Shown here piece by piece: positions 173-13,314 of a DNA stretch of 42,783 nucleotides. The DNA is taken from contig DXBP01000026.1 of assembly GCA_019116445.1 (NCBI GenBank), positions 1 to 42,783 of the forward strand. The letters run 5' to 3'. The stretch comes from Candidatus Gemmiger excrementigallinarum (lineage in GTDB: Bacteria > Bacillota > Clostridia > Oscillospirales > Ruminococcaceae). The translations under genes and the position numbers were made by a program. Within the stretch, counting starts at the first letter, position 1; every line of letters begins with the position of its first letter. The notes beneath the pieces are model-generated. The model saw nothing but the letters and a program-made list of their open reading frames with translations. It had not been told where the DNA came from and did not search any database.

Positions 173-220
173 TATGGGGCTAGTAACAGGACTCGAACCT
201 GCAACCTGCTGATTACAAAT
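173..220. repeat. attL: 48-bp copy of the tRNA-Thr 3' end
   Basis: Identical over 48 bases to 13267-13314. It includes the tRNA 3' CCA-end complement, T arm, variable loop and part of the anticodon arm. Beyond position 220 the identity stops, so no functional tRNA can be made from this copy. Confidence 0.93.
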
Positions 221-248
221 TGTGCCTCCCTGCTTTTGTGACGTGTAG

Positions 249-301
249 TGTCATTCAGTTTTATTCTATATATCGTCATTTTTAATTCATTGTCATTCAG
301 T
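249..301. repeat. 11-bp direct repeat near the left end
   Basis: TGTCATTCAGT occurs at 249-259 and again at 291-301, 42 bp apart (four helical turns), in an AT-rich stretch between attL and the integrase gene. It could be an excisionase or integrase accessory site; this is inference from position only. The rest of 221-417 has no gene that I can support. Confidence 0.4.
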
Positions 302-327
302 AGTATATTGCATTTTTTAGTATAATA

Positions 328-346
328 GTTGACCAAAAGTTGACCA
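328..346. repeat. Left integrase arm-type site (candidate)
   Basis: GTTGACCAAAAGTTGACCA is a doublet of GTTGACC with an 11-bp period. The same 19 bases occur in the same orientation at 13167-13185 near the other end. Paired direct repeats about one helical turn apart inside both ends are typical of arm sites bound by the N-terminal domain of tyrosine integrases. Confidence 0.6.
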
Positions 347-369
347 CGATGGCAGGTTGACAAAGCATT

Positions 370-413
370 TCCCCGGCTGGCCGTGTCCGATGTTGGCACA
401 TTCCCGCCGGGGA
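370..413 (-). terminator. Possible terminator after the integrase gene
   Basis: TCCCCGGC (read on the minus strand) at 413-406 pairs with GCCGGGGA at 377-370, enclosing a 28-base loop. It lies immediately downstream of the integrase stop at 418. The following T tract is weak, so this is only a candidate. Confidence 0.35.
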
Positions 414-417
414 TTTT

Positions 418-1842
418 TCAGCCTGTTTCAGTTTGTAGGATGCGGGCAAATGCCTCCCCCAGAGCGTCGGCAGCCCTGGCGTCGGAAGAGCGGATAAACC
501 CGGCATAGATGTTTGTAGTAGTGCTGACCTGTGCATGGCCCAGCCGTCCGGCCACCGTTGTGACCGGCACATGGGCGGCGATCAGCAGCGCAGCGTTTGA
601 ATGGCGCAGGCTATGGAACCGTACCGGCGGCAAATCATGCTCCCGCAGGAAGCGCGGGAACCAGCTTGTCACGCTGTTGGGGTCTATGGGCTGACCGTCC
701 CACTTGGTAAACAACAGGTCGTTGTCTACCGTCTTTCCCAAAATGCGCACCTTTCGCGCCCACTTGGAGCCGATGCGCAGCCGCTCCCGCAACTGCCACT
801 GTTGATAGTCCCGCAAGAGCTGTACCGCGTTTTCATCCAGCTTTATGACACGGCAGCTTTTCTTTGTTTTGGGGGTGGAGAACAGCAGCCCTTTGCCATC
901 CACCGGCTCCAATGTCCGATTGACGGCCAGCAGCCCTGCGGGCAAGTCTATGTCAGACCACCGCAGGCCGCACAGTTCGCCCCGGCGGCACCCGGTAAAC
1001 AAAGCGAGCTGCACAAGCACGCTGTATTGCGTTGGAGCGTCCGGCAGCGCCGCAAGCAGCTTTGCAATGCCGGATTCGTCCAGGTATTGCACCTCCGGCG
1101 TCTCCACTTTGGGCGGATCCACACGGGCGCAGGGGTTTTCCTGCAGCAGTTGCCACCGTACCGCCGTATTAAACACGCTGGACAACAACCGGTGATAATG
1201 CCGGGCGCTGTTGCCGGACAGTTTTTCATTCCTTGACACGTTTTCAAAGGCTTTGGAGAACGGCACCCTGGCAGCCTGTGCGAGCTTTTGAGCCGTTTGC
1301 AGACTGGTGCACTCCCCTGCCCATATCCGCGCTACGGTGCGCTCTGCGACGCCCGCAGCGTCCACCAGGGCCTTGCGCTTGCCCTTCGGATACACAGACA
1401 CAAAGCCAGGCTTTGCCTGGTATTTGCCATCTAGGCGGATACCGGGCTTTTGCAGTTGGGTGTAAAACTGCATGATATGACCCGGGCGCAGCTTGCTCAA
1501 CTTGATATGCCCCAGGGCGGCAGAGATGCGGGGCACCAACTTTCTGTAGTCATTGACCGTGTGGGGCTTCAGTTGCGGCTCTGCGTATTCCTTGAACCAC
1601 TTTGCAAGCAATTCGTCCACCGTCATGGAATCAGCCACAAGCCCGCCTTGCTGCACCTGGCGTTCAAAATCCATTGCCGCCTTTTGCACAGCCTTTTCGA
1701 TCTGGCGGGCCGTCATTCCTTCCGTCGGGCAATAGGTGGTGCTTTTCATGACCTTTTTGCCGTCCTGGGCCTCACCGGCATAAACCCGGATGCGGTAGGA
1801 GGTCTTGCCGTCTTTAGTTGTCCGTTTCTGGATGTTCGCCAT
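418..1842 (-). CDS. int: Tyrosine site-specific integrase with embedded HTH segment
   Basis: Phage-type tyrosine recombinase, 474 residues, expected to integrate and excise the element at tRNA-Thr. The N-terminus (about 1-60) looks like an AP2-like arm-binding domain; the core-binding region spans about 75-235; the catalytic domain carries Arg286 (TGCRRGEL), a Lys in the TPKTKKS loop, His410 and Arg413 (FHSLRH), His436 (GRLGH) and Tyr446 (NIYAG). Unusual is residues 153-201, an XRE-like helix-turn-helix stretch (AAGVAERTVARIWAG) inside the core-binding region. The start at 1842 is preferred over an upstream in-frame ATG at 1857 because the codons between them contain the AGGAG ribosome site. 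It overlaps the repressor gene by 29 bp, suggesting coupling. Confidence 0.93.
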   Translation of the reverse strand: MANIQKRTTKDGKTSYRIRVYAGEAQDGKKVMKSTTYCPTEGMTARQIEKAVQKAAMDFERQVQQGGLVADSMTVDELLAKWFKEYAEPQLKPHTVNDYRKLVPRISAALGHIKLSKLRPGHIMQFYTQLQKPGIRLDGKYQAKPGFVSVYPKGKRKALVDAAGVAERTVARIWAGECTSLQTAQKLAQAARVPFSKAFENVSRNEKLSGNSARHYHRLLSSVFNTAVRWQLLQENPCARVDPPKVETPEVQYLDESGIAKLLAALPDAPTQYSVLVQLALFTGCRRGELCGLRWSDIDLPAGLLAVNRTLEPVDGKGLLFSTPKTKKSCRVIKLDENAVQLLRDYQQWQLRERLRIGSKWARKVRILGKTVDNDLLFTKWDGQPIDPNSVTSWFPRFLREHDLPPVRFHSLRHSNAALLIAAHVPVTTVAGRLGHAQVSTTTNIYAGFIRSSDARAADALGEAFARILQTETG

Positions 1843-2635
1843 CTTTATTCTCCTCAACGGCCTTCAATGCAGAAATCATTATATCGGCAAATTCATCCAA
1901 ACTTAGCGCCCTGTGAGTATCGACTAATTGTTGCAGTGACGCCTTTTCAAGAGCAGCTTCACATAGTTCCAAATCCGTTTGTATAAAATCATTCACAAAA
2001 TTGTCTGCCGCTTCTTTTGCATCGTATTTTCGCATTCGGCAAATAGTGTTTAATTCGGTTATTTTCTGAATCAGTTGCCCAAAATCCAGTGCGCTCATTT
2101 CTAACATAGCATCCCTGGAAACATCTTTCAAAAGTTCTTGTAAACGACTCGCAGCATTTTTGTACAACGCAAGACTTTCTGATATTTTTGCAGCGCATCC
2201 ACTTTCGATGATGCGTGACGTGACAGTTCGCACTTCATTGTAAAACTCTGAAACGTTTTGGCAAATTTCCAGCAGCTCACCTATAGAACTTGTTGCAGGC
2301 AATAGCGCTTTTTCGTTCTGACCTGCCAATCGTTTTACGGCCCCTTCAGTAAGTCCTGTGTATCTGCATACAGACTCTAACGTTGCGTTCACTTGCTTTG
2401 GCGCACTTTCTAGCAAAAGCCAATCTATAGATACGTTAAATTCTCTTGCTATTTTTAACAGAGCAACCGCGTCCGGCGCACTTTTGCCGCTGCACCAGTT
2501 TCCAACAGTTTGCCGAGTCGCACCGACAATCTCTGCAATTTTTTCTTGTGTAATTCCTTTTGTTTCGTCAATCAGTCCCCGGAATCTCCGGGGAAAAGTG
2601 TCGTTGTATTCAAACTTTTTATTTTTTCTCGGCAC
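1814..2635 (-). CDS. cI-like XRE-family repressor
   Basis: A 273-residue protein with an N-terminal XRE helix-turn-helix at about residues 25-75 (GITQEKIAEIVGATRQTVGNW) and a long helical C-terminal region with no recognisable protease or metal motif. Its place, directly upstream of and overlapping int and divergent from the replication operon, is that of a lysogeny repressor. GTG at 2635 is the likely start: the Shine-Dalgarno GGAGAGG lies just upstream, and an earlier GTG at 2644 overlaps that site. It is visibly more AT-rich than its neighbours, as element control regions often are. Which operator it binds is not shown. Confidence 0.8.
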   Translation of the reverse strand: MPRKNKKFEYNDTFPRRFRGLIDETKGITQEKIAEIVGATRQTVGNWCSGKSAPDAVALLKIAREFNVSIDWLLLESAPKQVNATLESVCRYTGLTEGAVKRLAGQNEKALLPATSSIGELLEICQNVSEFYNEVRTVTSRIIESGCAAKISESLALYKNAASRLQELLKDVSRDAMLEMSALDFGQLIQKITELNTICRMRKYDAKEAADNFVNDFIQTDLELCEAALEKASLQQLVDTHRALSLDEFADIMISALKAVEENKDGEHPETDN

Positions 2636-2800
2636 AGCAATCACCTCTCCACTTTGTTAAATCTATTTGAAAACTTGCGTTATAATAAAATCAGAAAATA
2701 AATTTTGCATTTTTGTATTTAGCTTGTTTTATTTTGCTTTTCATAGTACAATGATAGCACAATACAGCACAGTTTTCAAGAGAAAGGAAAGGGCGTTTAT
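2636..2800. promoter_or_regulatory. Divergent control region of the element
   Basis: This AT-rich gap separates the leftward repressor-integrase unit from the rightward operon. A rightward promoter is clear: -35 TTGTTT (2724-2729), 17-bp spacer, -10 TACAAT (2747-2752). A TATAAT at 2681-2686 has no good -35. The leftward promoter could not be assigned with confidence. Confidence 0.6.
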
Positions 2801-2986
2801 ATGGAAAAATTAAGCCAAGAGGCCATTACCCTCCGCCGTAAATATCTGCGCAGCTGGCGGGCAAAAAACCGCGATAAGGTGCGCGAATACAACGCACGTT
2901 ATTGGGAAAAGCGTCTTGAACGTGAAGCCAGTGCCGCAGAGCAAGCGGCCCAGAAGCAGAAAGAAGGTGATACAAACAATGGGTGA
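2801..2986 (+). CDS. Small basic phage-type protein
   Basis: First gene of the rightward operon, 61 residues, ATG preceded by AGAAAGGAAAGGG. It is rich in Arg, Lys and aromatic residues (RRKYLRSWRAKNRDKVREYN, then RYWEKR), a pattern seen in small proteins next to excisionases in Firmicutes prophages and ICEs. No function is established; a DNA- or RNA-binding role is a guess from its charge. Its last 8 bases overlap the next gene. Confidence 0.65.
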   Translation: MEKLSQEAITLRRKYLRSWRAKNRDKVREYNARYWEKRLEREASAAEQAAQKQKEGDTNNG

Positions 2987-3206
2987 AGCCGTCCTATTCC
3001 CCCGCATGGGCACCATCAAAGAAGCCGCCGACGCCTCCGGCCTTGCCGTCTATCGTGTGCGCCGTCTGGTGGCCTCTGGCCGTATTCGCTACGTCAAAGC
3101 TGGTCGCCGTATCCTGGTAAACTTGGACAGCCTGGCCCGCTATCTGAATACGGGAGATCAGCCGGATTCGGTCACTTGTGGCGGTATGCAGAGGATTCCC
3201 GAATGA
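2979..3206 (+). CDS. Excisionase-like HTH protein
   Basis: A 75-residue protein with a MerR/AlpA-type helix-turn-helix of the excisionase family: TIKEAADASGLAVYRVRRLV (12-31), a basic wing (GRIRYVKAGRR) and a helix LVNLDSLARYL. Such proteins bend DNA at att sites to direct integrase towards excision. ATG 2979 follows AAGAAGGTGA; a longer upstream reading runs inside the previous gene and is unlikely. It overlaps the previous gene by 8 bp and the next by ATGA, so the block is translationally coupled. Confidence 0.75.
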   Translation: MGEAVLFPRMGTIKEAADASGLAVYRVRRLVASGRIRYVKAGRRILVNLDSLARYLNTGDQPDSVTCGGMQRIPE

Positions 3207-3322
3207 GCACGCAAAAGAAAAAAGCCGCCCCGGATGCTGCAACATCCAGAACGGCCCGGCGGTGGGAAAATGCACGCTATCGCAATTTCACCGCCCCTAT
3301 TCTACCACACAGAAAGGGGTAA
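3203..3322 (+). CDS. 39-residue ORF coupled to the excisionase-like gene
   Basis: ATG 3203 overlaps the preceding stop as ATGA; the frame stays open for 39 codons to a TAA ending at 3322, four bases before the next ATG. The product is basic (MSTQKKKAAPDA start, then RTARRWENARYR). No family was recognised. Coupling and tight packing argue for translation, but the region could also be a structured spacer. Confidence 0.4.
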   Translation: MSTQKKKAAPDAATSRTARRWENARYRNFTAPILPHRKG

Positions 3323-3326
3323 CGCA

Positions 3327-3656
3327 ATGATTGAAGTATCCAGTTTTTTGAAACACGGACGTGAAAACGCCATATCTGCCGCAGACCTGTGTAAAGCCAC
3401 CGGGGCCACACCCCGCGCTCTGCGCCATTGCATAGCTGCAGAACGAGCCGCCGGGGTGGAAATCCTTTATTCACCTGACGGGCAGAGCGGGTACTTCCTG
3501 CCCAATCTTGACCCGGTAAAAGCCAAAATGGAGCGTCAAGCCTTTTACCATGTGATGAAGGCGCGGGCGGTCTGCACCTGCACCGCTCTGCGTCCTGTTG
3601 CCCGCGCTTTAGGCGTCCCGGCGGTGCAAGTGTCCCCCGTTGAAAGCGAGGCGTAA
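3327..3656 (+). CDS. Small winged-helix DNA-binding protein
   Basis: A 109-residue protein whose first 60 residues read as a helix-turn-helix with a wing: AISAADLCKATGATPRALRH, then a beta turn (EILYSPDGQSGYFLP). Similar small proteins lie between excisionase and replication genes in Clostridia prophages. ATG 3327 follows AGAAAGGGG; the longer upstream frame lacks a ribosome site. The stop at 3656 is two bases before the initiator gene. Target and role are unknown. Confidence 0.65.
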   Translation: MIEVSSFLKHGRENAISAADLCKATGATPRALRHCIAAERAAGVEILYSPDGQSGYFLPNLDPVKAKMERQAFYHVMKARAVCTCTALRPVARALGVPAVQVSPVESEA

Positions 3657-3658
3657 GC

Positions 3659-4357: not shown

Positions 4358-5191
4358 ATGAGCGACTGGAACGACCGACTGGGCAACCCTCTGCAACCGA
4401 GCGACTACATAGACGCCAAAAGCGGCCTGGTTGTTTGCGGTACGTGCGGCGAGCCGAAACAGCACGTCATTGAGCTGGCAGGCGTCAAGACGATTGTGCC
4501 GTGCGCCTGCCGGTGTACCAGAGAGCAGGACGCAGCCCGGCGGGAGGAAGTGGAACGCCAGCGCGCAGAGTATGAGCGTTCCCGCCGTCGAACCGAGTGT
4601 TTCGGGGACGATCTGAAAAAGGCCGGATACACCTTTGCAGCGGATGACCGGCGCAATGCGCAGGTGTCAGACGCCGCCTGGGGCTATACAAAGGACTTTG
4701 CGCAGCAGCGCAAGGACGGCAAGGGTCTTTTGTTCCTGGGCACAGTCGGAACCGGGAAAACCTTTTACGCCTGTTGCATCGCAAACGCCGTCATAGATGC
4801 AGGGTACAGCGCAATCGTGACGAACTTTGCACAGATTGCAAGCGATCTGCAAGGCGCGTTTGATAAACGATCAGTACACAATCGGCTGCTACGGGCGGAC
4901 TTGATTGTGCTGGACGATCTGGCCGCAGAGCGTGACACCTCATTCATGCAGGAAGTTGTTTTCCAGGTGGTAGAGGAACTCAGCGGGGCAGGCAAGCCCA
5001 TGATCCTGACGAGCAACCTGTCCCCGCAAGAGTTCCTGCACCCGGCGGAGTTATCCCGCTCCCGCGTATTTTCCAGAGTGGCGGAGGTCTGCACCATCAT
5101 TTCCGTGACCGGCGCAGACAGACGCATGGAACGGCGCAAGGCGGAGCAGAAAGACGACAGACAACGGCTGATTGACGCAGCAAGCAGCTAA
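4358..5191 (+). CDS. DnaC/IstB-type helicase loader ATPase
   Basis: A 277-residue AAA+ protein. An N-terminal Cys cluster (Cys27, Cys30, Cys49, Cys51, Cys53) may bind zinc; Walker A is GTVGTGKT (128-135), Walker B is LIVLDDL (182-188) and sensor 1 is ILTSNLS. This is the DnaC-like loader type that places the replicative helicase on origin DNA. The start codon directly follows the initiator stop (TAAATG), so the two are coupled and probably act together. No helicase gene is in the element, so a host or helper DnaB-type helicase must be used. Confidence 0.85.
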   Translation: MSDWNDRLGNPLQPSDYIDAKSGLVVCGTCGEPKQHVIELAGVKTIVPCACRCTREQDAARREEVERQRAEYERSRRRTECFGDDLKKAGYTFAADDRRNAQVSDAAWGYTKDFAQQRKDGKGLLFLGTVGTGKTFYACCIANAVIDAGYSAIVTNFAQIASDLQGAFDKRSVHNRLLRADLIVLDDLAAERDTSFMQEVVFQVVEELSGAGKPMILTSNLSPQEFLHPAELSRSRVFSRVAEVCTIISVTGADRRMERRKAEQKDDRQRLIDAASS

Positions 5192-5251: not shown

Positions 5252-6082
5252 ATGGAATCTGCAAAAAACACCGGGCAGCAGGAAACAAACGCAGCCCTTG
5301 CCGCGCTGGCCGCCACCGGCAACGCCTTTGCCCTGGGCCAGCTTTGGGAGATCAACAAAGGACTGCTGCACTCTATGTTCTGGAAGTGGTACTCCGGCCA
5401 CCGGGAACAGGCAGACGCGCATGGTATGACTGTGGACGATTTCGAGCAAGAGGGCTTTTTTGCGGTGCAGTACGCCGCCGAGCACTACGACCCCGGCAAA
5501 GGCATTGCGTTCTCCACATGGCTTGCATACGCCATGAAACGGCAGATTGACCAGGCTTTGACCAACGGCCACCGGCGCAACATCACAGGCACAGACGGAA
5601 AGATTCACACGATCAGCGCCGACCCTCTAAACCACTGCACAAGCCTGGATGCCCCGGCGGGCACCGACGGCGAAAGCGACACGACGTTTGGAGAACTTCT
5701 CCCCGACCAGACGGCGGCCAGAGAGATGCAGGGCGTGGAAGATAGGCTTTATCATGAGCAGATGCACGACGCTGTAGAGAACGCCCTTGAAAAACTGCCG
5801 CCGGATGAATTGGAGGTTTTGCGCTGTCATTTCTACCAGGATAAAACCTACAAGGAAACCGCCTCCGTCGTTGGCAAAGACCTTTCGACGGTTCGCGCAA
5901 TAGAGGGACGCGCACTTCGCAACTTGCGCGCAGACCCGAAGCTGCGGCGCTGGCACGATGATTTCATCACGACCAGGGCATGGAGCAACGCCGGATTCTT
6001 TGCATGGCAGAATAGCGGCAGCATTGAGGAACGCACCATAGAATCGTTAGAAAATCGAAACCTGCTTAACGTGTGCCCCTGA
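5252..6082 (+). CDS. Element-encoded sigma-70 family factor
   Basis: A 276-residue sigma factor. Region 2 is at about residues 30-105 (DFEQEGFFAVQYAAEHYDP, then FSTWLAYAMKRQI), and region 4 at about 185-235 (ALEKLPPDELEVLRCHFYQD, then YKETASVVGKDLSTVRAIEG). Region 1.1 is absent and region 3 is reduced. Phage-type sigma-like proteins in this position drive late gene transcription; here it lies between replication and tail genes, so it may switch on the tail cassette or helper promoters. The ribosome site (GGGGG) is poor. A non-promoter role cannot be excluded. Confidence 0.78.
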   Translation: MESAKNTGQQETNAALAALAATGNAFALGQLWEINKGLLHSMFWKWYSGHREQADAHGMTVDDFEQEGFFAVQYAAEHYDPGKGIAFSTWLAYAMKRQIDQALTNGHRRNITGTDGKIHTISADPLNHCTSLDAPAGTDGESDTTFGELLPDQTAAREMQGVEDRLYHEQMHDAVENALEKLPPDELEVLRCHFYQDKTYKETASVVGKDLSTVRAIEGRALRNLRADPKLRRWHDDFITTRAWSNAGFFAWQNSGSIEERTIESLENRNLLNVCP

Positions 6083-6121: not shown

Positions 6122-6586
6122 ATGTCAAAACATCTTACAGACAAAGAGAGAAAACAAGTTATCGCAGACTTTGTGGTGCTAGGAACTTATGCGGCAGTTT
6201 CAAGAAAGCATAAAATCTCCCCTCACACAGTGCGAAACATCGTTGCGGCAGACCCCCATATTACCGAAAAATGCCGCTGTAAAAAAGAACAAAATACAGC
6301 GGACATTTTAGCGTATATGGACGGACAGAAGGAAACGGTGTGTGCCATTATCGGCTTGCTTCTTCAGGCATTACAAGACCCCGAAAAGCTGAACCGAGCA
6401 AGTATACAGAGCGTTGCCGTTTCTTTGGGAATCATCATTGATAAATTCACCTCCGCCGGGGCAACCGTCGAAGAACAGCGCCTGCGCATTGCCATGCTGA
6501 AGGAAAAGACCGGCCAGGGCGAGCGCGACCTGTCGCAGTTTGAGGAAATCGTAAAGGCAAACGGTGGGCGTTTTCTTCTCTCATAA
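6122..6586 (+). CDS. TerS-like helix-turn-helix protein
   Basis: A 154-residue protein with an N-terminal HTH (TYAAVSRKHKISPHTVRNIV, 21-40) and a helical middle with the pattern ASIQSVAVSLGIIIDKFTSA (102-121). This architecture resembles small terminase subunit-like HTH proteins found before terL in Clostridia prophages. Small terminase selects DNA for packaging. No large subunit follows, which is what a satellite that redirects a helper packaging motor would show. The assignment is from pattern only; a transcription regulator is the alternative. A GGAGGGCG site precedes ATG 6122. Confidence 0.5.
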   Translation: MSKHLTDKERKQVIADFVVLGTYAAVSRKHKISPHTVRNIVAADPHITEKCRCKKEQNTADILAYMDGQKETVCAIIGLLLQALQDPEKLNRASIQSVAVSLGIIIDKFTSAGATVEEQRLRIAMLKEKTGQGERDLSQFEEIVKANGGRFLLS

Positions 6587-6675: not shown

Positions 6676-7119
6676 ATGAGATTCTACTCCATGACAACCA
6701 ACCGGGCCGCCATTGACAGCCGGTCATTCCATGACGCCGTGACCATCGGCGGAGGTATTCACGAGATCCGCCTGCGCTTTGGGAAAGCGGCCCCAGCCTT
6801 CTGGAAAATCTGGAAAGCCATAGAAACCGGCACGCAAGAAGATCAGAAAGCAGCATACAACAGCCTGTCCGCGCTGCTGTTCGGTGAAGATGCCGCCGAG
6901 ATTGCTGCAGCAGAGGGTGAGGCAGTCTTTTTTGTATGGCTGTACCACTACACCAAAACCCGCGTCTTGCCCTTCATGCTGGCCTGTTCTGCGGCACTGA
7001 AGTTTGCTTATATGCGCGCGACTGTTTACACCCGCCCGCCCATGACCCGGGCCTTCTATTCTGTGTATCTGCGGCTGCGCATGGCCGCCGAAATCGCAAA
7101 AGCCCGGAAATACCAGTGA
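6676..7119 (+). CDS. Unknown protein at head of tail cassette
   Basis: A 147-residue protein, not recognised. The N-terminal half (AVTIGGGIHEIRLRFGKAAP) and acidic middle (LLFGEDAAEIAAAEGEAVFF) recall tail assembly chaperone-type proteins, and the C-terminus is basic and aromatic-rich. The ribosome site AGAAAGGG precedes ATG 6676; ATG 6691 is an alternative. It sits where a major tail protein or first chaperone would be in a siphophage but is too short for a major tail protein. The 89-base gap before it holds nothing I can identify. Confidence 0.55.
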   Translation: MRFYSMTTNRAAIDSRSFHDAVTIGGGIHEIRLRFGKAAPAFWKIWKAIETGTQEDQKAAYNSLSALLFGEDAAEIAAAEGEAVFFVWLYHYTKTRVLPFMLACSAALKFAYMRATVYTRPPMTRAFYSVYLRLRMAAEIAKARKYQ

Positions 7120-7133
7120 AGGGAGGCAGAACC

Positions 7134-7520
7134 ATGCACATCATCGAACACAAAGACCGCGCCGCCGCAAAACCGTACAAGGACACCGTAATATTCAAGC
7201 GTGGCGGCCAAAAGCTGCGCCTCCGGGTGCACGCAGACCCGTTTGCCGCTCTGTTTCAGATGGACGCGGCTCTGGACACTATGCGCAAAGCAGAAAGCAA
7301 AATCAAGGCAAACCCAGCGGACGCCGAAGTGCAGGAAGCATACGGCGGGGCCGTTCTGGACTTCTTTGCCGCCGTGTTCGGGGAAGATCAGACGCTTGCC
7401 ATTGTCGATTTTTACAAGGGCCTCCCGGGCTTTATGCTGCGGGACGTGAAGCGGTACATCATCGGCACCGCTTTGCCGAAAATAAAGAAACTGGCGGCCA
7501 AACAGAGCCGCCGGGCGTGA
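7134..7520 (+). CDS. Phage tail assembly chaperone
   Basis: A 128-residue protein. Its C-terminal half (FFAAVFGEDQTLAIVDFYKG, then ALPKIKKLAAKQSRRA) matches the style of Firmicutes phage tail assembly chaperones, which bind the tape measure protein and help the tail tube polymerise on it. It lies 15 bp before the tape measure gene, as in siphophages. ATG 7134 follows GGGAGG; a longer upstream frame has no support. No slippery heptamer for a G/GT frameshift was noticed. Confidence 0.68.
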   Translation: MHIIEHKDRAAAKPYKDTVIFKRGGQKLRLRVHADPFAALFQMDAALDTMRKAESKIKANPADAEVQEAYGGAVLDFFAAVFGEDQTLAIVDFYKGLPGFMLRDVKRYIIGTALPKIKKLAAKQSRRA

Positions 7521-7535
7521 TAGGTAGGTGATTTA

Positions 7536-9569
7536 ATGGCAGATGTTGGTGAAGTTCGATACAAAGTTACCGTTGACGATTCCGGCATCGAGAACGACCA
7601 GAAGAAAGTCGAGGATAAACTAGGGAAAGGCGGCAAGAGTGCCGGAGCACAGTTTGCCGAAGGTTTCAAGGCAGGCATAGACCCCACAAAGGCCACCAAT
7701 AGCAAAGTGGCCGACGCAGTAACCGACAAATGGAAAACGGCATCCGCCGTTGTTGGTGCGTCCTTTGCCGCCATGACCGCCGGGGCCGTCGCCTTTGGCG
7801 TGAAGTCGATAGGCCTTGCGTCCGATCTGAACGAGGTGCAAAACGTCGTTGACACCACCTTTGGGGACAGTGCCGATCAGGTCAACAAGTGGGCGGAATC
7901 CGCTGGAGAGGCGTTTGGTTTGTCGGAACTGTCGGCCAAACAGTACACATCCACGCTGGGGGCTATGCTGAAAAGTATGGGCATGAGTGAGGACGCTACA
8001 ACCGAAATGTCCATCGCGCTTGCCGGCCTTGCTGGTGATATGGCCAGTTTCTACAACCTTGACCCGGCGGAAGCGTTTGAAAAACTGCGCAGCGGCATTT
8101 CCGGCGAGACTGAACCGCTCAAACAGTTGGGCATTAACATGAGCGTCGCCAATTTGGAGGCATTTGCTCTTGAAAACGGCTTACTGGATGTTGCCGAAGG
8201 CAGCAACGAGTTAAAACAGGCCCAGGAAGAACTCTCCATAAAGCAAATGAAGCTGAATGAGCTGCAAGAAAAGGGCACCGCGTCCGCAAGCCAGATTGCA
8301 AGCGCACAGCTTGCGGTTGAAAAGGCCCAGGACAAGGTAAACGACAGCATGACGGCCAGTTTTGACAGCCTGGACGCAGCGACGCAAGCAGAAATTCGCT
8401 ATCAGTACATCATGCAAGCCACCGCCGACGCGCAGGGTGATTTTTCCAAAACATCGGACAGCCTTGCCAACCAGCAGCGAATTTTGCAAATGGAGGTGGA
8501 AACACTTTCCGCCGACCTGGGCCAGGCGCTTCTCCCTGCCGCTCTAAGTGTCGTGGAAGGGCTGCGCAGCCTTGTGGAATGGGCAAGCCAAAACCAAACG
8601 GCGCTCACCGTTTTGGCGGTCGCCTTTGCCGGTATAACCGCCGCAATTATCGCCTATTCCGCAAGCCTGACCCTTGCCGCCTCCGGCATGACGATAGCGA
8701 CAGCCGCCGGGGCTGCTTTCGGTGCCGTCGTGGGCTTCCTGACAAGCCCCATCACGTTGGTGATTGCGGCCATAACGGCCCTGGTTGCCGCTGGGGTGCT
8801 CCTATACCAAAACTGGGACACCGTTTCCGCATGGGCTGCAAGCGCCTGGGAAAGTATCAAGCAAAGCATTTCAAGCGCAATAGAGGCCGTGTCCGCCTTC
8901 ATATCGAACCTTGCGGCCTCTGCATCCGCCAAAATGAGCGGAGTTCGGGACGCCATCGTGAACGGTTTCAACAGCGCGGTGGAGTTTATAACCTCCCTGC
9001 CCGCAAAAGCCAAACAATGGGGGTCTGACTTTGTACAGGGCCTTATTGACGGTATCACCTCTATGGCCCGCAATGTTGCGGACGCGGCAAAGGGACTTGC
9101 CGATAAAATTGCCGGGTTTCTCCACTTCTCCCGCCCCGACGTTGGCCCGCTGCGCGAGTATGAAACGTGGATGCCCGACATGGTGCGCGGCCTTGCTGCT
9201 GGCATCCGGGCGAATGAGCCGGAGCTGGAAAGCGCCGCCGATTCTATGGCCGGGAAGGTTTCCGGCAAGATCAAACGGGGCATTGCCAGCGCTGCGCAAT
9301 GGGCAGACTTTGCAAGCGGCATAAACATTCCCGGCCCGCTTTCCCCTGGCCTTTCCTGGTCCTCTCTAACCGGCAGACTTGACGCGGCGGGAGTTTTCTC
9401 ACACGATAGCACGCGCATGGAAGGGCTACGGCAGGCGCTCACGATCACGCCAACAATAGCCAAACCCGGCGGGGCCTTCATCGAAGTACCCGTGTCCATT
9501 GATGGCCGGGAAGTGGCCCGCGCTACTGCATGGTACATGGGTGAGCAACTTGCATGGGAGGAAAGATAA
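7536..9569 (+). CDS. Phage tail tape measure protein
   Basis: A 677-residue tape measure protein of the TP901 type. The N-terminal domain (about 75-215) has GVKSIGLASDLNEVQNVVDT and a following conserved SAKQYTSTLGAMLKSMGMSE; a helical stretch (about 220-330) and a hydrophobic Ala-rich segment (about 350-430, likely membrane-active helices) follow, then LYQNWDTV and a C-terminal domain. Tape measure length sets tail length, and 677 residues would predict a medium-short siphophage tail. It is intact, though the element has no capsid or tube gene. Confidence 0.92.
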   Translation: MADVGEVRYKVTVDDSGIENDQKKVEDKLGKGGKSAGAQFAEGFKAGIDPTKATNSKVADAVTDKWKTASAVVGASFAAMTAGAVAFGVKSIGLASDLNEVQNVVDTTFGDSADQVNKWAESAGEAFGLSELSAKQYTSTLGAMLKSMGMSEDATTEMSIALAGLAGDMASFYNLDPAEAFEKLRSGISGETEPLKQLGINMSVANLEAFALENGLLDVAEGSNELKQAQEELSIKQMKLNELQEKGTASASQIASAQLAVEKAQDKVNDSMTASFDSLDAATQAEIRYQYIMQATADAQGDFSKTSDSLANQQRILQMEVETLSADLGQALLPAALSVVEGLRSLVEWASQNQTALTVLAVAFAGITAAIIAYSASLTLAASGMTIATAAGAAFGAVVGFLTSPITLVIAAITALVAAGVLLYQNWDTVSAWAASAWESIKQSISSAIEAVSAFISNLAASASAKMSGVRDAIVNGFNSAVEFITSLPAKAKQWGSDFVQGLIDGITSMARNVADAAKGLADKIAGFLHFSRPDVGPLREYETWMPDMVRGLAAGIRANEPELESAADSMAGKVSGKIKRGIASAAQWADFASGINIPGPLSPGLSWSSLTGRLDAAGVFSHDSTRMEGLRQALTITPTIAKPGGAFIEVPVSIDGREVARATAWYMGEQLAWEER

Positions 9570-9570
9570 A

Positions 9571-10137
9571 GTGAAGGCGTTTAGAATTGGTTTACCCTCC
9601 ACCGTTTCCTACTGCGGCAAGGAATATAGGCTGCGCCCCGCGTGGCCCAACGTGCTGACCGCTGCGGACGTTTTGAGCGACCCCGCATTGCCGGACGGTA
9701 TCAAGATCAGCGCCGCCCTTGACCTGGTAATTGCATCACAGCACCCGGCGGACGTTAAGCTGCTGGAGGCTGCTTTTTCAACGCTGAACCCCGACGCAAA
9801 GACCGGCGGCAAAAAGCTGCTTGATTTTAACCAGGATTGGGAATACATCGTTTCGGGCATCCTGCAGGCATACGGCATTGACCTGTACGCCGCCCCGCGC
9901 CTGCACTGGATGCGGTTGCGCTCCATGCTGGAAAGCATCCCGAACAATACCCGCATTGCGGAAATTATGGCAATCCGGGGCATGGAAATGCCCAAACCGA
10001 CAAAGTACAACGGGGAGGAACGGGCGCGAATTGCCCGGCTAAAGGCCCAGTTTGCCATCAAGGCCGCCCCCTCTGGCCTGTCTGAAGGTCTGAACGGCTT
10101 GTTCAATGCGCTGGCCGCCCAGGCAAGGCAGAAATAA
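9571..10137 (+). CDS. Bacteriophage Gp15-family tail protein
   Basis: A 188-residue protein that resembles the Gp15 family (listerial phage A118 type), found beside tape measure genes: LPSTVSYCGKEYRLRPAWPN at the start, DFNQDWEYIVSGILQAYGID in the middle, LHWMRLRSMLESIP after it. GTG 9571 is chosen because GGGAGGAAAG lies just upstream and the tape measure stop is two bases before. In the usual order Gp15 precedes the tape measure gene; here it follows. Its biochemical role is not known. Confidence 0.75.
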   Translation: MKAFRIGLPSTVSYCGKEYRLRPAWPNVLTAADVLSDPALPDGIKISAALDLVIASQHPADVKLLEAAFSTLNPDAKTGGKKLLDFNQDWEYIVSGILQAYGIDLYAAPRLHWMRLRSMLESIPNNTRIAEIMAIRGMEMPKPTKYNGEERARIARLKAQFAIKAAPSGLSEGLNGLFNALAAQARQK

Positions 10138-10152
10138 CCAACAAACAAAGCA

Positions 10153-10196
10153 AGCCGTCCGGCAAAGGTCACACGACCCGCCGGGCGGCTTTTTTT
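10153..10196 (+). terminator. Terminator of the replication-tail operon
   Basis: An 11-bp stem (10153-10163 with 10180-10190, one G-T pair) is followed by six T. It closes the long rightward operon that begins at 2801. Read on the other strand it could also stop transcripts from the zeta gene. Confidence 0.8.
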
Positions 10197-10216
10197 CTGT
10201 TCTGAATGAGTTTAAT

Positions 10217-10269
10217 GACACGATAACGCGCGCGAAATTCGCCCAGTTTGCGGACACGATACGCGCGCG
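10217..10269. repeat. Direct repeat GACACGATA(A)CGCGCGCG
   Basis: The motif occurs at 10217-10234 (with one extra A) and at 10253-10269, 36 bp apart, between the two convergent transcription units. The alternating CG runs stand out from the surroundings. Function unknown; a protein-binding site is possible. Confidence 0.4.
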
Positions 10270-10316
10270 TAGCCTCTGCGGTCCCTGCTCGCCCCGCTGT
10301 GCGCTTTTCACACCCA

Positions 10317-10877
10317 TCAAAGGGTAATTTCCCGCCTTAGTTCCAAAAGCCACGCAGGGGGCGTTTCTGTGGCTGTCGCGATTTCCCCGTTGCGGTAAAA
10401 CGCAACGACCCGGAAACCGTTGTTGTTATCGTAGAAGGTCGCCTCATTGCACAGGGGCAGCAGTTTGGCGAGATCACGGAACCGCCGGGCAAAGCGGCGC
10501 TCCACATCCTGCGCCGCAATATTGTGGCCGCCGTGCGCCACCCGGTTTGCAATGCGCTGTATGGATTCCTGTGCCGTGTCCAGCCCCACATAGTACAGCC
10601 GCACAGTATAGCCCGCATCACGGGCCGCACGCGCCATCTTGCGGGAAAAGCTGCCCGAAAGGGTGCTTTCCTCTGTGAAGTCTATACGCTGCTCCAGGCA
10701 GCTTTGCAGCTTTTCGATAGCTGCTTGACCACCTGCGTATTCATCGCCACCCAGTTGGGCAGTCAGTTTGTCGGGGTCAACGATCACGCCCAGATCATCC
10801 AGGCAATCTTTGAGGACGCCGGACAGGCTGCTTTTGCCTGCGCCGTTGACACCGCCCACAATGGTAAACATCGGCAT
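10317..10877 (-). CDS. Zeta toxin-like P-loop kinase
   Basis: A 186-residue zeta/AAA-type kinase. Walker A is GGVNGAGKSS (8-17), followed by DPDKLTAQL and a TEESTLSGSF motif that matches the zeta substrate-binding strand. Zeta toxins phosphorylate UDP-N-acetylglucosamine and block wall synthesis; related proteins may use other substrates. Its ATG overlaps the upstream RHH stop (TAATG), the classic antitoxin-toxin arrangement. The partner is not an epsilon antitoxin, so this is a variant pairing. A housekeeping kinase cannot be excluded, but gene context favours addiction or defence. Confidence 0.8.
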   Translation of the reverse strand: MPMFTIVGGVNGAGKSSLSGVLKDCLDDLGVIVDPDKLTAQLGGDEYAGGQAAIEKLQSCLEQRIDFTEESTLSGSFSRKMARAARDAGYTVRLYYVGLDTAQESIQRIANRVAHGGHNIAAQDVERRFARRFRDLAKLLPLCNEATFYDNNNGFRVVAFYRNGEIATATETPPAWLLELRREITL

Positions 10878-11080
10878 TATTCGTCTACCTCCCCGGAGGC
10901 TTCCCGCTCCATGCGTTGCTTGACTGCCCCCACAATATAGCCGTTGAGGCTCTCCCCTGCTGCATCGGCAGCGGCTTGCACTTCTGCACGTTGGCCCTTT
11001 GGCAGCCTCACAAGAACCTTATCGTATTTGGCCGCTTCGTATTTTGTGGTTGCTTTAATTTGTGCTTTGCTTACCGTCAT
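10877..11080 (-). CDS. Ribbon-helix-helix antitoxin/repressor
   Basis: A 67-residue Arc/RHH-type protein: strand YDKVLVRLPKGQRAEVQAAA, then the helix pair AGESLNGYIVGAVKQRME. It is coupled to the zeta-like gene by a TAATG overlap and starts after GAGGTGAT. Such proteins bind palindromic operators as dimers. Three related 17-bp motifs lie directly upstream (11114-11196) and are the expected sites for autorepression and for control of the divergent operon. Confidence 0.8.
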   Translation of the reverse strand: MTVSKAQIKATTKYEAAKYDKVLVRLPKGQRAEVQAAADAAGESLNGYIVGAVKQRMEREASGEVDE

Positions 11081-11113
11081 AGTATCACCTCGATACTATT
11101 ATACCACAATATT

Positions 11114-11203
11114 ATAGCGATAGCGATATACAAAATAGATAGCGCTAGCGTTATATCTTTGTGCAATCCGTCAATTGATATAACGATAGCGATATAGTAT
11201 AAT
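11114..11203. promoter_or_regulatory. Three 17-bp operators and a divergent promoter
   Basis: ATAGCGATAGCGATATA (11114-11130), ATAGCGCTAGCGTTATA (11139-11155) and ATAACGATAGCGATATA (11180-11196) are near-identical. The third lies exactly in the spacer of a rightward promoter, -35 TTGATA (11175-11180), 17 bp, -10 TATAAT (11198-11203). The others cover the leftward promoter area of the RHH gene. The RHH protein is the likely ligand. Confidence 0.7.
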
Positions 11204-11449
11204 GATAATGTCGAAAGGGACAAGGCACGGTGAAAACCTCTGGGGAACACCGGTAAGCGCCAGATAACAGACTGCGCAACGGACTTGCAAAGCAAGGGTT
11301 AAACAAGCATTGGGCACTGGCCGCCTGCAACCGAGTAGACAAAAAGAAAAGGCACCGCGACAGCCGACCAAAGCAAACGCGATGCCAAACCCAACAAGGG
11401 GCAGCCCCATTATAGCACGGGCCGCCCTCCATATCAAGGAGGTTACACC

Positions 11450-11725
11450 ATGAGTAGTATTGAACTTCTTTCCCTTGTAGAACAGTACAAGGAAGCACAG
11501 CAGCTTATTGAAGCTGCACAGGCGGAGATGGACACCATCAAGGCCACCATTTCGGCGGAAATGGCCCGCCGGGACGTTGACCGCATGGACGTGGGCACCC
11601 ACAAAGTCACGCTGAAAACCGTGACTACCAGCCGCCTGGACGGCAAGGCCATCAAGGCCGCCGCGCCCGACCTGGCCGCCCGCTTCATCAAGACCACCAC
11701 GACCACGCGCTTTTGCGTGGCGTAA
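11450..11725 (+). CDS. Small coiled-coil phage/ICE protein
   Basis: A 91-residue protein with an N-terminal helix (LLSLVEQYKEAQQLIEAAQA) and a C-terminal segment VTLKTVTTSRLDGKAIKAAA ending in TTTTTRFCVA. This end is shared by small proteins of Firmicutes mobile elements whose function is unknown to me. The start follows AAGGAGG. It is first in the rightward operon driven by the promoter at 11175-11203; about 245 bases of untranslated leader precede it, which is long and may be regulatory. Confidence 0.65.
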   Translation: MSSIELLSLVEQYKEAQQLIEAAQAEMDTIKATISAEMARRDVDRMDVGTHKVTLKTVTTSRLDGKAIKAAAPDLAARFIKTTTTTRFCVA

Positions 11726-11777
11726 ACCACAAAGCTGTGCTATCTGGCTATACGGGCTTTCAAGGGAGGATGCAACC

Positions 11778-12125
11778 ATGAAGAAACCGCAAGATGCGAA
11801 CACCGCCGCCGATCAGCAGCCGGCCGGCAAGACCTTCACCTTCACCGACCCCGAGATCATCAAAATTGCGGAGGCTCTTTCCGACGCGCGGCTTGCCGGA
11901 CGCATTCACGGGGGCGACACTATCACCGCAGATGTAAAGGCAATGCTGAAAGAAGATGCCGCCTTTATCAACCTGTTCGGCTTCACCAACCGGGACGCTA
12001 TGGAGACAGCATACATCATCCGGCGCAGCCTCGACAACCCGCTGGCAGTGCACAGGATTATGAAGTGGGCTTTCGCTGTGGAAGAAGTCCAAAGAAAAAA
12101 GGCCCGGCAAACCGGCGAGGAATGA
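11778..12125 (+). CDS. Paralogue A of small KTFTF-motif family
   Basis: A 115-residue protein, largest of three tandem relatives. It has KTFTFTDPEI near the start, an insert of about 45 residues, then DAMETAYIIRRSLDNP and a helix ending EEVQRKKA. The same blocks occur without the insert in the two following genes. No known family was recognised. GGGAGG precedes the ATG. All-helical, soluble, with no catalytic motif visible. Confidence 0.65.
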   Translation: MKKPQDANTAADQQPAGKTFTFTDPEIIKIAEALSDARLAGRIHGGDTITADVKAMLKEDAAFINLFGFTNRDAMETAYIIRRSLDNPLAVHRIMKWAFAVEEVQRKKARQTGEE

Positions 12126-12138
12126 GGGGGACAAGATC

Positions 12139-12300
12139 ATGGACAAGACGTTCACATTTTCGGAGCCGGACGCGATCAGCGCCGCATACATCATCCAAAG
12201 CGCCCAGGGCAACCCCAGGTTGCTCCATGAAATTCTGATTCATGCGCGGGCCTTTGAGGAGGTCTACCGGCGCAAGGCTGAACAGACCGACAAAGAGTGA
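12139..12300 (+). CDS. Paralogue B of small KTFTF-motif family (53 aa)
   Basis: A 53-residue protein: KTFTFSEPDAISAAYIIQSA, then GNPRLLHEILIHARAFEEVY and a basic end. It is the minimal form of the family. Its leader (GAGGGGGACAAGATCATGG) is almost identical to that of paralogue C, which supports a recent tandem duplication. Function unknown; the size suggests a protein-binding adaptor or inhibitor, which is a guess. Confidence 0.65.
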   Translation: MDKTFTFSEPDAISAAYIIQSAQGNPRLLHEILIHARAFEEVYRRKAEQTDKE

Positions 12301-12317
12301 TTAGAGGGGGCAAGATC

Positions 12318-12590
12318 ATGGACAAAGACAAACTCATTGCACAGCTGTTTGCGCTGCTGAAGGACGCAAGCGCAGTACAGTGCGACCTTGTGCTGACTTC
12401 TGTGGAGCACACGACCGGCAAGGCAAGGGACGATAAGGCCAGCGGCAAGACCTTCACCCTCACCGCGCCGGACGCTATCGAAATAGCGTACATCGTCCAG
12501 CGCTCGCAAGACAACCCACAGCTGATGCACAAGCTGCTGCTCTACTGCAAGGCATTTGAAAAAGCATATTCTGATGATGATCAGAAGTAG
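12318..12590 (+). CDS. Paralogue C of small KTFTF-motif family
   Basis: A 90-residue protein with a 45-residue N-terminal helix-rich extension (KLIAQLFALLKDASAVQ), then KTFTLTAPDAIEIAYIVQRS and DNPQLMHKLLLYCKAFEKAY. ATG 12318 is chosen because it is preceded by GAGGGGG, as in paralogue B; an upstream in-frame codon at 12297 overlaps the previous stop. Last gene of the operon; a terminator follows at once. Confidence 0.65.
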   Translation: MDKDKLIAQLFALLKDASAVQCDLVLTSVEHTTGKARDDKASGKTFTLTAPDAIEIAYIVQRSQDNPQLMHKLLLYCKAFEKAYSDDDQK

Positions 12591-12595
12591 CTTCC

Positions 12596-12622
12596 GCCCC
12601 GGTTAATCCCCGGGGCTTTTTT
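12596..12622 (+). terminator. Terminator of the small-gene operon
   Basis: GCCCCGG and CCGGGGC form a short GC-rich hairpin followed by a run of six T, a few bases after the stop of paralogue C. It separates the coding part of the element from the non-coding right end. Confidence 0.7.
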
Positions 12623-12691
12623 GTTTGATTGCGACCAGTATTAAAACCAGTCGCAAAACGCACGCAATCGCACGGTGTGCGTTTCTTTTGC

Positions 12692-12727
12692 TTATCTTTT
12701 CAAAATCGTGCGATTTTCGAAAGATAA
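12692..12727. repeat. Long near-perfect dyad, 17-bp arms
   Basis: 12692-12708 pairs with 12711-12727 in 15 of 17 positions around a 2-base centre. It is AT-rich with a CGATTTT/AAAATCG core. There is no T tract for termination, so it is more like a protein-binding dyad or an origin element. Flanking bases 12620-12690 hold smaller GCGAC and CGCAC dyads. Confidence 0.5.
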
Positions 12728-12810
12728 ACGCATGGCGGCGTGTTCTGATCGTGCGCCGTGCATTCCACCATTTCCGCAGGGTCACGAAAATGGCCCGCCG
12801 GGCGGCCTGT

Positions 12811-13120
12811 GCTACCTGGGAAAACCTGGGGTTTTTCTTATATAGGCCCCCGTAGTGTTTTCATCCTTTTTTGTGTCGTTTTTTGTACGGTTTCGGGGAC
12901 GGTGCCGGAGGCGGAAAACCTGCAAAAACCTGTATTTTTCCCTGTATAGCAAAAGCTATTTGCCATATAGCAAATATGCCAAAACCTAAGAAAACCCAAT
13001 ATTTCCGCCTATATCGCCGAGCGCCTGGAAGCTAACAAAAGCTAACGTTTCCGCCCATATTGCCCCCGCAGGCTGGAACCTACGGAAACCTACGATTTCT
13101 GTCTATATAGTCCCGAGCGC
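12811..13120. repeat. Array of five 40-47-bp repeats with internal doublets
   Basis: Repeats at 12811-12852, 12912-12950, 12979-13024, 13026-13069 and 13074-13120. Each has a 7-base word twice with a 10-bp period, then a TTTCC-type tract, a TATA-rich core and a CCC(GAGCGC) tail. The word differs between repeats but agrees within a repeat: ACCTGGG twice, ACCTGCA/ACCTGTA, ACCTAAG/ACCCAAT, AGCTAAC twice, ACCTACG twice. Two hairpins (12946-12959, 12958-12975) lie between the second and third. No convincing gene lies in 12591-13268. An origin, packaging or accessory recombination site is possible. Confidence 0.7.
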
Positions 13121-13166
13121 GTCCCCCCGATCAGTGGACCGGCAAACGCGCAGTTTTTTGAGGAAA

Positions 13167-13185
13167 GTTGACCAAAAGTTGACCA
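13167..13185. repeat. Right integrase arm-type site (candidate)
   Basis: The 19 bases are identical to 328-346 and in the same orientation. They lie 82 bp inside the right attachment repeat, while the left copy lies 108 bp inside the left one. The most likely reader is the arm-binding domain of the element integrase. Confidence 0.6.
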
Positions 13186-13215
13186 TTCCCGGAAAATCAG
13201 GCCCCGTCTGGGCAT

Positions 13216-13266
13216 AAAAAAGAACCGCCGTGCTTGCGATTTTGTACGCAGATACGGCGGTTTTCT
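13216..13266 (-). terminator. Element-supplied terminator for tRNA-Thr
   Basis: AACCGCCGT (13223-13231) pairs with ACGGCGGTT (13254-13262); on the minus strand a run of six T follows the stem. It lies directly downstream of the tRNA 3' end within the element, replacing the chromosomal one now found at 133-171. Confidence 0.7.
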
Positions 13267-13314
13267 TATGGGGCTAGTAACAGGACTCGAACCTGCAACC
13301 TGCTGATTACAAAT
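13267..13314. repeat. attR: 48-bp repeat within the intact tRNA-Thr
   Basis: Identical to 173-220. It covers the 3' portion of the tRNA-Thr gene plus two bases beyond the CCA end. Because the element carries this sequence, insertion leaves a whole tRNA gene. Confidence 0.93.

What the first reader, a model, noticed from the sequence alone, without database searches (positions are those of the whole stretch)
173..13314. A tRNA-Thr element with its own tape measure but no capsid, portal or large terminase
Seen: perfect 48-bp ends, intact integrase, repressor, replication genes, sigma-like and TerS-like proteins, and a complete tail-length cassette, all without capsid, TerL, major tail, baseplate or lysis genes. 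Known: PICI-type satellites carry integrase, replication and packaging-redirecting genes and steal helper particles; several reshape helper capsids. Inference: this one may reshape the helper tail by supplying another tape measure and chaperone, a strategy I do not know to be described. A decayed prophage is the main alternative, but its genes look intact.
Basis: partly seen in the sequence, partly recalled or inferred. Interest (0 to 1): 0.85.

Follow-up and report, generated by a model that had tools for sequence, protein, structure and literature searches.

The report
Phage satellite with its own tail-ruler
A small mobile element in what is probably a gut bacterium has no recognisable genes for a virus head but carries the genes that set the length of a virus tail, so it probably fits its own ruler into tails taken from a helper virus, a trick already shown by experiment in satellites of the cholera bacterium.

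Summary
Window 173-13314 is a 13.1-kb element with 48-bp identical ends at tRNA-Thr(TGT). Among 19 proteins scanned none is head, portal, TerL, major-tail or lysis, but there are a tape measure (TMP), a homologue of the prophage gene in the tail-chaperone position, Gp15 and a TerS homologue. It is unlikely to be a chance deletion product. A distant integrase carries a 58%-identical full-length TMP with chaperone and zeta/antitoxin in an 11.5-kb island at tRNA-Val (L039). Nine islands (L039 included) share its phage-type sigma factor; no head gene was recognised in them. L039 and L206 carry TMPs, L204 a tail-tip protein, six no recognised tail gene. Gp15 precedes TMP in 20 of 20 other loci but follows it here. 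A resident prophage fragment has a TerS 42% identical, next to TerL. Best reading: a phage satellite that redirects packaging and builds chimeric helper tails with its own TMP. That mechanism was shown in 2026 for cholera PLEs (PMC12987554), so this is a new variant. New here: another bacterial lineage, with a tail module that differs from island to island. Helper, induction and particles are untested.

The parts
173..220 (.). left end repeat (48 bp, copy of part of tRNA-Thr)
   Evidence: identical to 13267-13314
418..1842 (-). tyrosine integrase
   Evidence: PF00589 2.8e-24, phrog_1 6.3e-75; 63% to the integrase of same-site island L285
1814..2644 (-). CI-type repressor
   Evidence: HTH_3 4.4e-12, phrog_8 1.1e-18
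2979..3206 (+). excisionase-like HTH protein
   Evidence: HTH_17 3.7e-9, phrog_66 4.6e-5
3234..3656 (+). small DNA-binding-like protein of the replication block
   Evidence: phrog_2113 6.2e-8; 48-50% to L285
3659..4357 (+). replication initiator-like protein
   Evidence: phrog_4707 9.5e-23
4358..5191 (+). DnaC-like helicase loader
   Evidence: phrog_50 2.9e-44
5252..6082 (+). phage-type sigma factor, likely late regulator; homologues in nine other islands
   Evidence: Sigma70_r4 4.9e-13, phrog_351 1.9e-31; L219; the other eight
6122..6586 (+). small terminase (TerS) homologue
   Evidence: 42% to the ORF directly upstream of TerL on own-genome contig C41 (E 1.4e-32); 35% over 149 aa to the ORF at the same position in prophage G107, which hits phrog_1206 TerS at 1.4e-5
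6676..7119 (+). chaperone-like protein A (tentative)
   Evidence: 33% over 63 aa to L039 6363-6551; no family hit
7128..7520 (+). tail assembly chaperone homologue B
   Evidence: aligns with the gene upstream of Gp15/TMP in three prophages; AF2 model pLDDT 87.6; second viral fold match is an annotated tail assembly chaperone, prob 1.00, TM 0.52, E 0.048; no family hit, no significant PDB match
7536..9569 (+). tail length tape measure protein, 677 aa
   Evidence: phrog_1535 1e-55; full-length homologue in L039
9571..10137 (+). Gp15-family tail protein, placed after TMP
   Evidence: PF06854 1.4e-28, phrog_706 2e-31; order test
10317..10877 (-). zeta-toxin-like kinase
   Evidence: PF06414 9.7e-12; 61-63% to L039
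10877..11080 (-). Arc-type antitoxin-like protein
   Evidence: PF03869 2.9e-4, phrog_13890 2.4e-17
11450..11725 (+). small protein 'l', shared by several islands
   Evidence: phrog_434 (its C-terminal part) 1.6e-12
11778..12590 (+). three related small proteins (11778-12125, 12139-12300, 12297-12590); relatives near the att end of L039, L204 and L205
13267..13314 (.). right end repeat inside tRNA-Thr(TGT) 13269-13344

Best explanation
The element is a phage satellite. Shown: it has satellite anatomy (integrase, repressor facing away from the rest, own replication genes, phage-type sigma, TerS homologue, small size, tRNA site) without recognisable head, TerL, tube or lysis genes, plus a tail-ruler cassette shared with an independently integrated island and with far fewer amino-acid-changing than silent differences. 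Inferred: after induction by a helper it excises and replicates; its sigma factor turns on its late genes; its TerS directs the helper's large terminase to its own DNA; its chaperone and 677-aa TMP replace the helper's in growing tails, and the helper tube and tip assemble around them. The result is a chimeric, probably shorter-tailed particle carrying satellite DNA. Likely gains, also inferred, are independence from interference aimed at the helper TMP and control over tail length or DNA entry.
For: Full-length TMP homologue (58% local, 69% over aligned columns; pS 0.78, saturated, against pN 0.22 over 612 codons) with chaperone B, zeta/antitoxin and small genes in L039, an 11.5-kb island at tRNA-Val with a 25%-identical integrase. 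Eight further islands share the sigma factor; no TerL/portal/minor head/MTP was found in them; L206 carries a different TMP and L204 a tail-tip protein (PF06605 1.7e-29) downstream of that sigma factor. L172, from a virus collection, carries integrase, zeta, TerS (phrog_57 4.6e-31) and TMP. Gp15 lies upstream of TMP in 20 of 20 other loci with both, downstream only here. Own-genome contig C41 has a TerS 42% identical, next to TerL; own-genome contig C30 has portal, TerL and an 808-aa TMP. Precedent by experiment in PLEs (PMC12987554).
Against: No helper, induction, excision or particle was observed. Six of the ten sigma-bearing islands counted show no recognised tail gene, among them the closest same-site sibling L285, so the cassette is optional. 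The nearest viral-contig integrase (66%) sits in a contig that looks, by eye, like a prophage end with an endolysin-like gene. Chaperone B has no family or significant PDB match and chaperone A is tentative. L039 shows no Gp15 and no TerS that I could recognise. The genome is an 83% complete MAG and C41 is a 6.9-kb contig that could be contamination. The head-gene BLAST is insensitive (31 of 90 control loci). A TMP gene alone does not prove that it is built into particles.
Confidence: 0.66

Rival explanations
1. A deletion remnant of a full prophage: the segment from TerL to the major tail protein and everything after the tail ruler were lost, leaving open but idle genes.
For: A prophage of about 31 kb uses the same tRNA-Thr in G274; an integrase 66% identical sits in L299, which looks by eye like a prophage end; TerS, chaperone, Gp15 and TMP are ordinary prophage genes.
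Against: The G274 prophage has a distant integrase (26%). Gp15 follows TMP, contrary to 20 of 20 loci. A TMP cassette of the same family sits in L039 with another integrase, tRNA and gene order (sigma after TMP), also without recognised head genes. TMP differences are mostly silent. Nine other islands share the sigma factor.
Confidence: 0.1
2. The satellite uses the tail cassette as a weapon: surplus TMP and chaperone titrate or poison helper tail assembly to protect the host or favour the satellite, and are not part of the particle.
For: Tail assembly is a known defence target (Tai, Tab: PMC11364771, PMC10884400, passages). Some islands carry only uncharacterised proteins at the late position.
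Against: The PLE inhibitor Rta is an 80-aa protein and Tai and Tab are described as blockers, not as TMPs; a poison needs no matched chaperone. In PLEs the TMP is incorporated and needed for transfer.
Confidence: 0.12
3. A satellite that picked up phage tail genes as passive cargo with no role in its own transfer.
For: Tail genes vary or are absent among siblings.
Against: Three distinct TMPs (window/L039, L206, L172) and one tail-tip gene occur in such islands; TMP differences are mostly silent; the chaperone is kept beside the TMP in window and L039.
Confidence: 0.1

Closest known systems
PLE satellites of Vibrio cholerae (PLE1, PLE4, PLE11)
   Same: Satellite-encoded TMP with a tail assembly chaperone gene; PLE11 TMP is built into chimeric, about 10-nm shorter tails and tmp deletion cuts transfer by 96% (PLE1), 99% (PLE4) and about 99.9% (PLE11) (PMC12987554, section 8 read).
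   Different: PLE tails are contractile and the helper is the lytic phage ICP1; here a tyrosine integrase at a tRNA, a CI-type repressor, Gp15 and a TerS homologue. PLE sequences were not compared.
cf-PICIs with putative tmp genes
   Same: Satellites reported in silico to carry tmp (PMC12987554, Extended Data Fig. 10 legend).
   Different: cf-PICIs are capsid-forming; no capsid, portal or TerL was recognised here.
Gram-positive PICIs / SaPIs
   Same: Size, integrase with regulator, own replication module, TerS homologue, no recognised head or lysis genes.
   Different: Carries tail assembly genes; its tRNA is also used by a prophage in the genus.
Prophages of the same bacterial family (e.g. 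G107, L110/L260)
   Same: Homologues of TerS, chaperone, Gp15 and TMP, in the order TerS-TerL-portal-...-MTP-chaperone-Gp15-TMP.
   Different: They carry the head module and tube; the order of Gp15 and TMP is reversed in the element.

Membership tests
Phage-inducible chromosomal island (criteria of PMC6092414, passages) | integrase, master regulator and replication module in conserved order | tested here: met
   int and repressor leftward, excisionase-like and replication genes rightward
Phage-inducible chromosomal island (criteria of PMC6092414, passages) | size around 12-15 kb | tested here: met
   13,142 bp from 173 to 13314
Phage-inducible chromosomal island (criteria of PMC6092414, passages) | att site never occupied by prophages | tested here: not met
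   G274 carries a prophage of about 31 kb (portal, minor head, TMP, TerL homologues) at the same tRNA-Thr
[quoted passage not shown]
   TMP, Gp15 and chaperone homologue present; head, tube and lysis genes not recognised
Phage-inducible chromosomal island (criteria of PMC6092414, passages) | phage-dependent induction, interference and packaging | not testable with these tools
   needs culture; only a TerS homologue and candidate resident prophages were found
cf-PICI | own capsid genes | tested here: not met
   no capsid, portal or TerL recognised
PLE | satellite TMP plus tail assembly chaperone | tested here: met
   7128-7520 and 7536-9569
PLE | homology to PLE genes and dependence on ICP1 | not tested
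   PLE sequences were not compared
PLE | satellite TMP in the virion | not testable with these tools
   needs particles
Decayed prophage | collinear with a full prophage apart from deletions | tested here: not met
   Gp15 order reversed relative to 20 of 20 loci; no collinear prophage among the loci read at the site or by TMP search

The most novel reading that the evidence does not exclude
A family of satellites, probably of Gram-positive gut bacteria, whose late slot near a phage-type sigma factor is an exchangeable tail module: one of several different tape measures, or a tail-tip protein, fitted into whichever helper tail is at hand. By swapping the module the satellites would reset tail length, DNA entry or even the host range of their transducing particles.
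Probability: 0.35. Interest if true: 0.8.

Novelty: new variant of a known kind. Interest (0 to 1): 0.62.

Why it matters
Satellites were known to remodel heads and packaging; tail remodelling was shown by experiment in 2026 in one family, the PLEs (PMC12987554). A second lineage in the family of Ruthenibacterium, with an apparently non-contractile-type ruler and a slot that in one island holds a tail-tip gene instead, would make tail piracy a general satellite strategy. A satellite and a resident prophage with tape measures of different length in one genome (677 against 808 aa) would make the ruler rule and its benefit directly testable.

Tried and rejected
Close relatives of Gp15 in IMG/VR: none. 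A TMP-alignment scan of IMG/VR gave one distant locus (L109, 29%, residues 1-676, in a 42-kb contig) and a chaperone-alignment scan none. The plasmid and phage collections hold no record in which one place covers 80% of the TMP. Loci with small TMPs were checked as possible further islands: G266 is a phage with TerL and portal homologues; G278 and G114 look like contractile-tail phages by eye only; G351 and G352 were not resolved. The helical protein of L039/L204/L285 gave an unusable model (pLDDT 38.8) and no family hit. A search for the rest of the C41 prophage by a portal from a relative of its TerL found nothing. A portal Pfam search of the own genome was empty although a BLAST-recognised portal lies on C30, so that empty answer is not evidence of absence. 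Zeta as a marker hits 62 of 396 genomes, mostly on other kinds of loci, so zeta alone does not define the family.

Results against the reading that are kept: six of ten sigma-bearing islands show no recognised tail gene; the integrase also occurs in a likely prophage; a prophage uses the same tRNA; 59 of 90 loci of the control set (89 TMP loci and L284, the flank of L291) gave no head-gene hit by iterated BLAST from one prophage, so that test is insensitive, and further islands among those 59 could have been missed. Two viral contigs, L302 (integrase 33%, sigma 28%, no tail gene recognised) and L173 (sigma, part of zeta), are partial and were left out of the count of ten. L210, L206 and L211 are cut by contig ends.
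Full report
What is there. Bases 173-220 and 13267-13314 are identical, the right copy lying in tRNA-Thr(TGT) 13269-13344 minus. Between them lie an integrase and repressor facing left, then rightward excisionase-like, replication, helicase-loader and sigma-factor genes, a TerS homologue, a tail cassette, a leftward zeta/Arc pair and small genes. Of 19 proteins scanned against Pfam and PHROGs none is assigned to a capsid, portal, large terminase, major tail, baseplate or lysis family; the TMP cross-matches an endolysin family at 1.7e-5. The left flank is only 172 bp long because the contig begins there, in a repeat.

The tail cassette. 7536-9569 is a tape measure (phrog_1535 1e-55 and many other TMP families). 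9571-10137 is Phage_Gp15 (PF06854 1.4e-28). 7128-7520 has no family hit but aligns with the protein just upstream of Gp15 and TMP in three prophages; its model is confident (pLDDT 87.6), its best viral fold match is an unnamed siphovirus protein (E 1.8e-6) and the second an annotated tail assembly chaperone (prob 1.00, TM 0.52, E 0.048); solved structures gave nothing significant. 6676-7119 is only tentatively chaperone-like. In prophage L110 the order is TerL, portal, minor head, connector, major tail protein (phrog_820), chaperone-position gene, Gp15, TMP. So the element carries the ruler and its helpers but not the tube.

TerS. 6122-6586 gave no useful family hit. It is 35% identical over 149 aa (E 1.2e-23) to the ORF directly upstream of TerL in prophage G107, which hits a TerS family (phrog_1206 1.4e-5). 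More telling, a 6.9-kb contig of the window's own genome (C41) ends in a TerL whose upstream ORF is 42% identical to it (E 1.4e-32; 24 of 55 and 24 of 55 residues identical in residues 1-55 and 56-110, 7 of 25 aligned after that). A homologue of a resident phage's TerS is what a packaging-redirecting satellite is expected to carry; that step is inference.

A sibling with another integrase. Of 197 family genomes searched with the TMP, 29 match at E 1e-10, and of 396 genomes searched with the two-sequence profile, 47 match at 1e-30. In these two surveys only one genome besides the window's aligns over the whole length: G031, seen also as contig CALXBO010000010.1 (L039). A distant full-length match (29%) was met in one 42-kb viral contig (L109). 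In L039 the TMP (58% local identity, 69% over aligned columns), chaperone B (39-40%), the start of protein A, zeta (63%), antitoxin and two small genes lie in an 11.5-kb island with 27-bp repeats at tRNA-Val. Its integrase is only 25% identical, and its sigma factor follows the TMP instead of preceding it; I recognised no Gp15 or TerS in it. TMP codons show pS 0.78 (saturated) against pN 0.22 over 612 codons, which points to selection for the protein sequence.

A wider family. Zeta (62 of 396 genomes, 67 places listed) was used as a lead; besides the window and L039, 56 of the other 65 places were fetched and mapped, nine were not fetched for this. Seven are islands with integrase, zeta and the same sigma type: L204, L205, L206, L207, L210, L212, L219. 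Adding the window, L039 and L285 (found by its site) makes ten islands with the sigma factor. Repeats mark both ends in L204, L205, L212 (tRNA-Val), L207 and L219 (tRNA-Gly), L285 (tRNA-Thr), and a sequence like the tRNA-Val repeat marks one end of L206, whose contig stops. In these ten, L211 and L172 no TerL, portal, minor head or major tail homologue was found by iterated BLAST (0 of 12; the same method detects such genes in only 31 of 90 control loci, so it is insensitive). The cargo near the sigma factor differs: TMP with chaperone (window, L039), a different TMP of 735 aa (L206, phrog_58 5e-49; 29% to the window's over 306 aa), a tail-tip protein (L204, PF06605 1.7e-29, phrog_5555 2.9e-61), and proteins of 200-220 aa without family, helical by eye (L207, L210, L212, L219, L285); L205 has none recognised. 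L039 and L204 also carry a 205-aa protein of that sort. A further island from a virus collection, L172, has integrase, zeta, a clear TerS (phrog_57 4.6e-31) and a TMP split over two ORFs (phrog_13339 4.1e-104 for the first), next to tRNA-Thr(GGT), without the sigma factor and without a repeat pair in the part held.

The same site. All 35 genomes of the genus match the flank with tRNA-Thr, at least three of them only over the tRNA part. Nineteen loci were read: in several what looks by eye like the same chromosomal gene end precedes the tRNA (L264, L266, L267, L270), right ends akin to the element's occur in L265, L268 and L273, and integrases lie next to it in L262 and L278. In G763 the site holds L285, a 10-kb island with an integrase 63% identical, sigma 51%, the 3234-3656 protein 48%, a weak TerS hit (phrog_4044 0.0011) and a 206-aa protein, but no TMP. 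In G274 it holds a prophage of about 31 kb with portal, minor head, TMP and TerL homologues and an integrase of 26% identity. That is not the collinear prophage that would make the element a remnant.

Why not a remnant. In 20 of 20 other loci holding both genes Gp15 lies upstream of TMP; in the element it lies downstream. Deletion alone does not produce this, nor the presence of the same cassette behind two distant integrases.

How it most likely works. Shown: anatomy, conservation, distribution. Inferred: helper induction, sigma-driven late expression, TerS-guided packaging, and replacement of the helper TMP and chaperone in the growing tail. The eight nearest TMPs outside the islands by N-terminal score are 973, 1128, 891, 1097, 848, 1127, 1213 and 621 aa long as called by my script; three of them (L083, L084, L149) lie in loci without a recognised head gene. 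A resident prophage (C30) has 808 aa. With 677 aa the element's ruler is shorter than that resident one and than seven of the eight. In PLEs a 95-aa difference was expected to give 10-15 nm and gave about 10 (PMC12987554), so tails roughly 14-21 nm shorter than C30 tails are predicted if C30 is the helper.

What is known. PMC12987554 (section 8 read in full, other passages) shows that PLEs encode TMP and chaperone, that PLE11 TMP enters chimeric tails about 10 nm shorter, and that tmp deletion lowers transfer by 96 to about 99.9%; it notes tmp genes in PLE-like elements and cf-PICIs. Tail assembly as a target of defence is in PMC11364771 and PMC10884400 (passages). The listings of searches showed no paper on such satellites in gut Clostridia; searches listed only 25 of 185 and 15 of 134 papers, and subscription papers and preprints are not held, so this is a limited statement.

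Verdict. The element fails two PICI criteria and the cf-PICI definition, and would work like a PLE without having been tested for membership. I file it as a new variant: a satellite lineage of another bacterial family with an exchangeable tail slot.

Noticed in passing
window 1-144: A repeat of about 140 bp at the contig start with seven other places in the genome, five of them beginning at base 1 of another contig; probably a small interspersed element at which the assembly breaks.
   Followed up: no
L204:12572-14260: An island at tRNA-Val without recognised head genes carries a Prophage_tail (PF06605) tail-tip protein next to its sigma factor, where L206 has a TMP; this could change receptor use of particles.
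   Followed up: partly
L039:5614-6237, L204:15176-15790, L285:6296-6916: A protein of about 205 aa, helical by eye, shared by three islands, no family hit; other unassigned 200-220-aa proteins lie at the late position in L207, L210, L212, L219.
   Followed up: partly
L172:2026-5650: TMP split over two ORFs (726 and 460 aa) in a TerS-bearing island from a virus collection; could be a frame break, an intron or a true split.
   Followed up: no
L317 (own genome C41) 5440-6894: Prophage fragment with a TerS 42% identical to the element's, directly before TerL; a helper candidate cut by the contig end.
   Followed up: partly
L314 (own genome C30) 1-13810: Resident prophage region with TMP (808 aa), Gp15, portal and TerL, homologous gene by gene to the prophage at tRNA-Thr in G274.
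   Followed up: no
L222:9578-14379: In a same-genus genome zeta sits beside another integrase, a 451-aa protein that looks like a relaxase (by eye) and a RepA-like ATPase: another element type.
   Followed up: no
L282 (G760) near 16760-16860: About 100 bp like the element's right end (74%) lie next to tRNA-Thr with what look like chromosomal genes beyond, perhaps a scar of an excised relative.
   Followed up: no
L299:3288-8451: Integrase 66% identical to the window's in a 12-kb viral contig with an endolysin-like gene (by eye): the integrase type is shared with prophages.
   Followed up: partly
L302 (viral contig, 8.7 kb): Integrase 33%, antitoxin, sigma 28% and loader 40% to the window in one partial contig; probably one more island of this kind, no tail gene recognised.
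   Followed up: no
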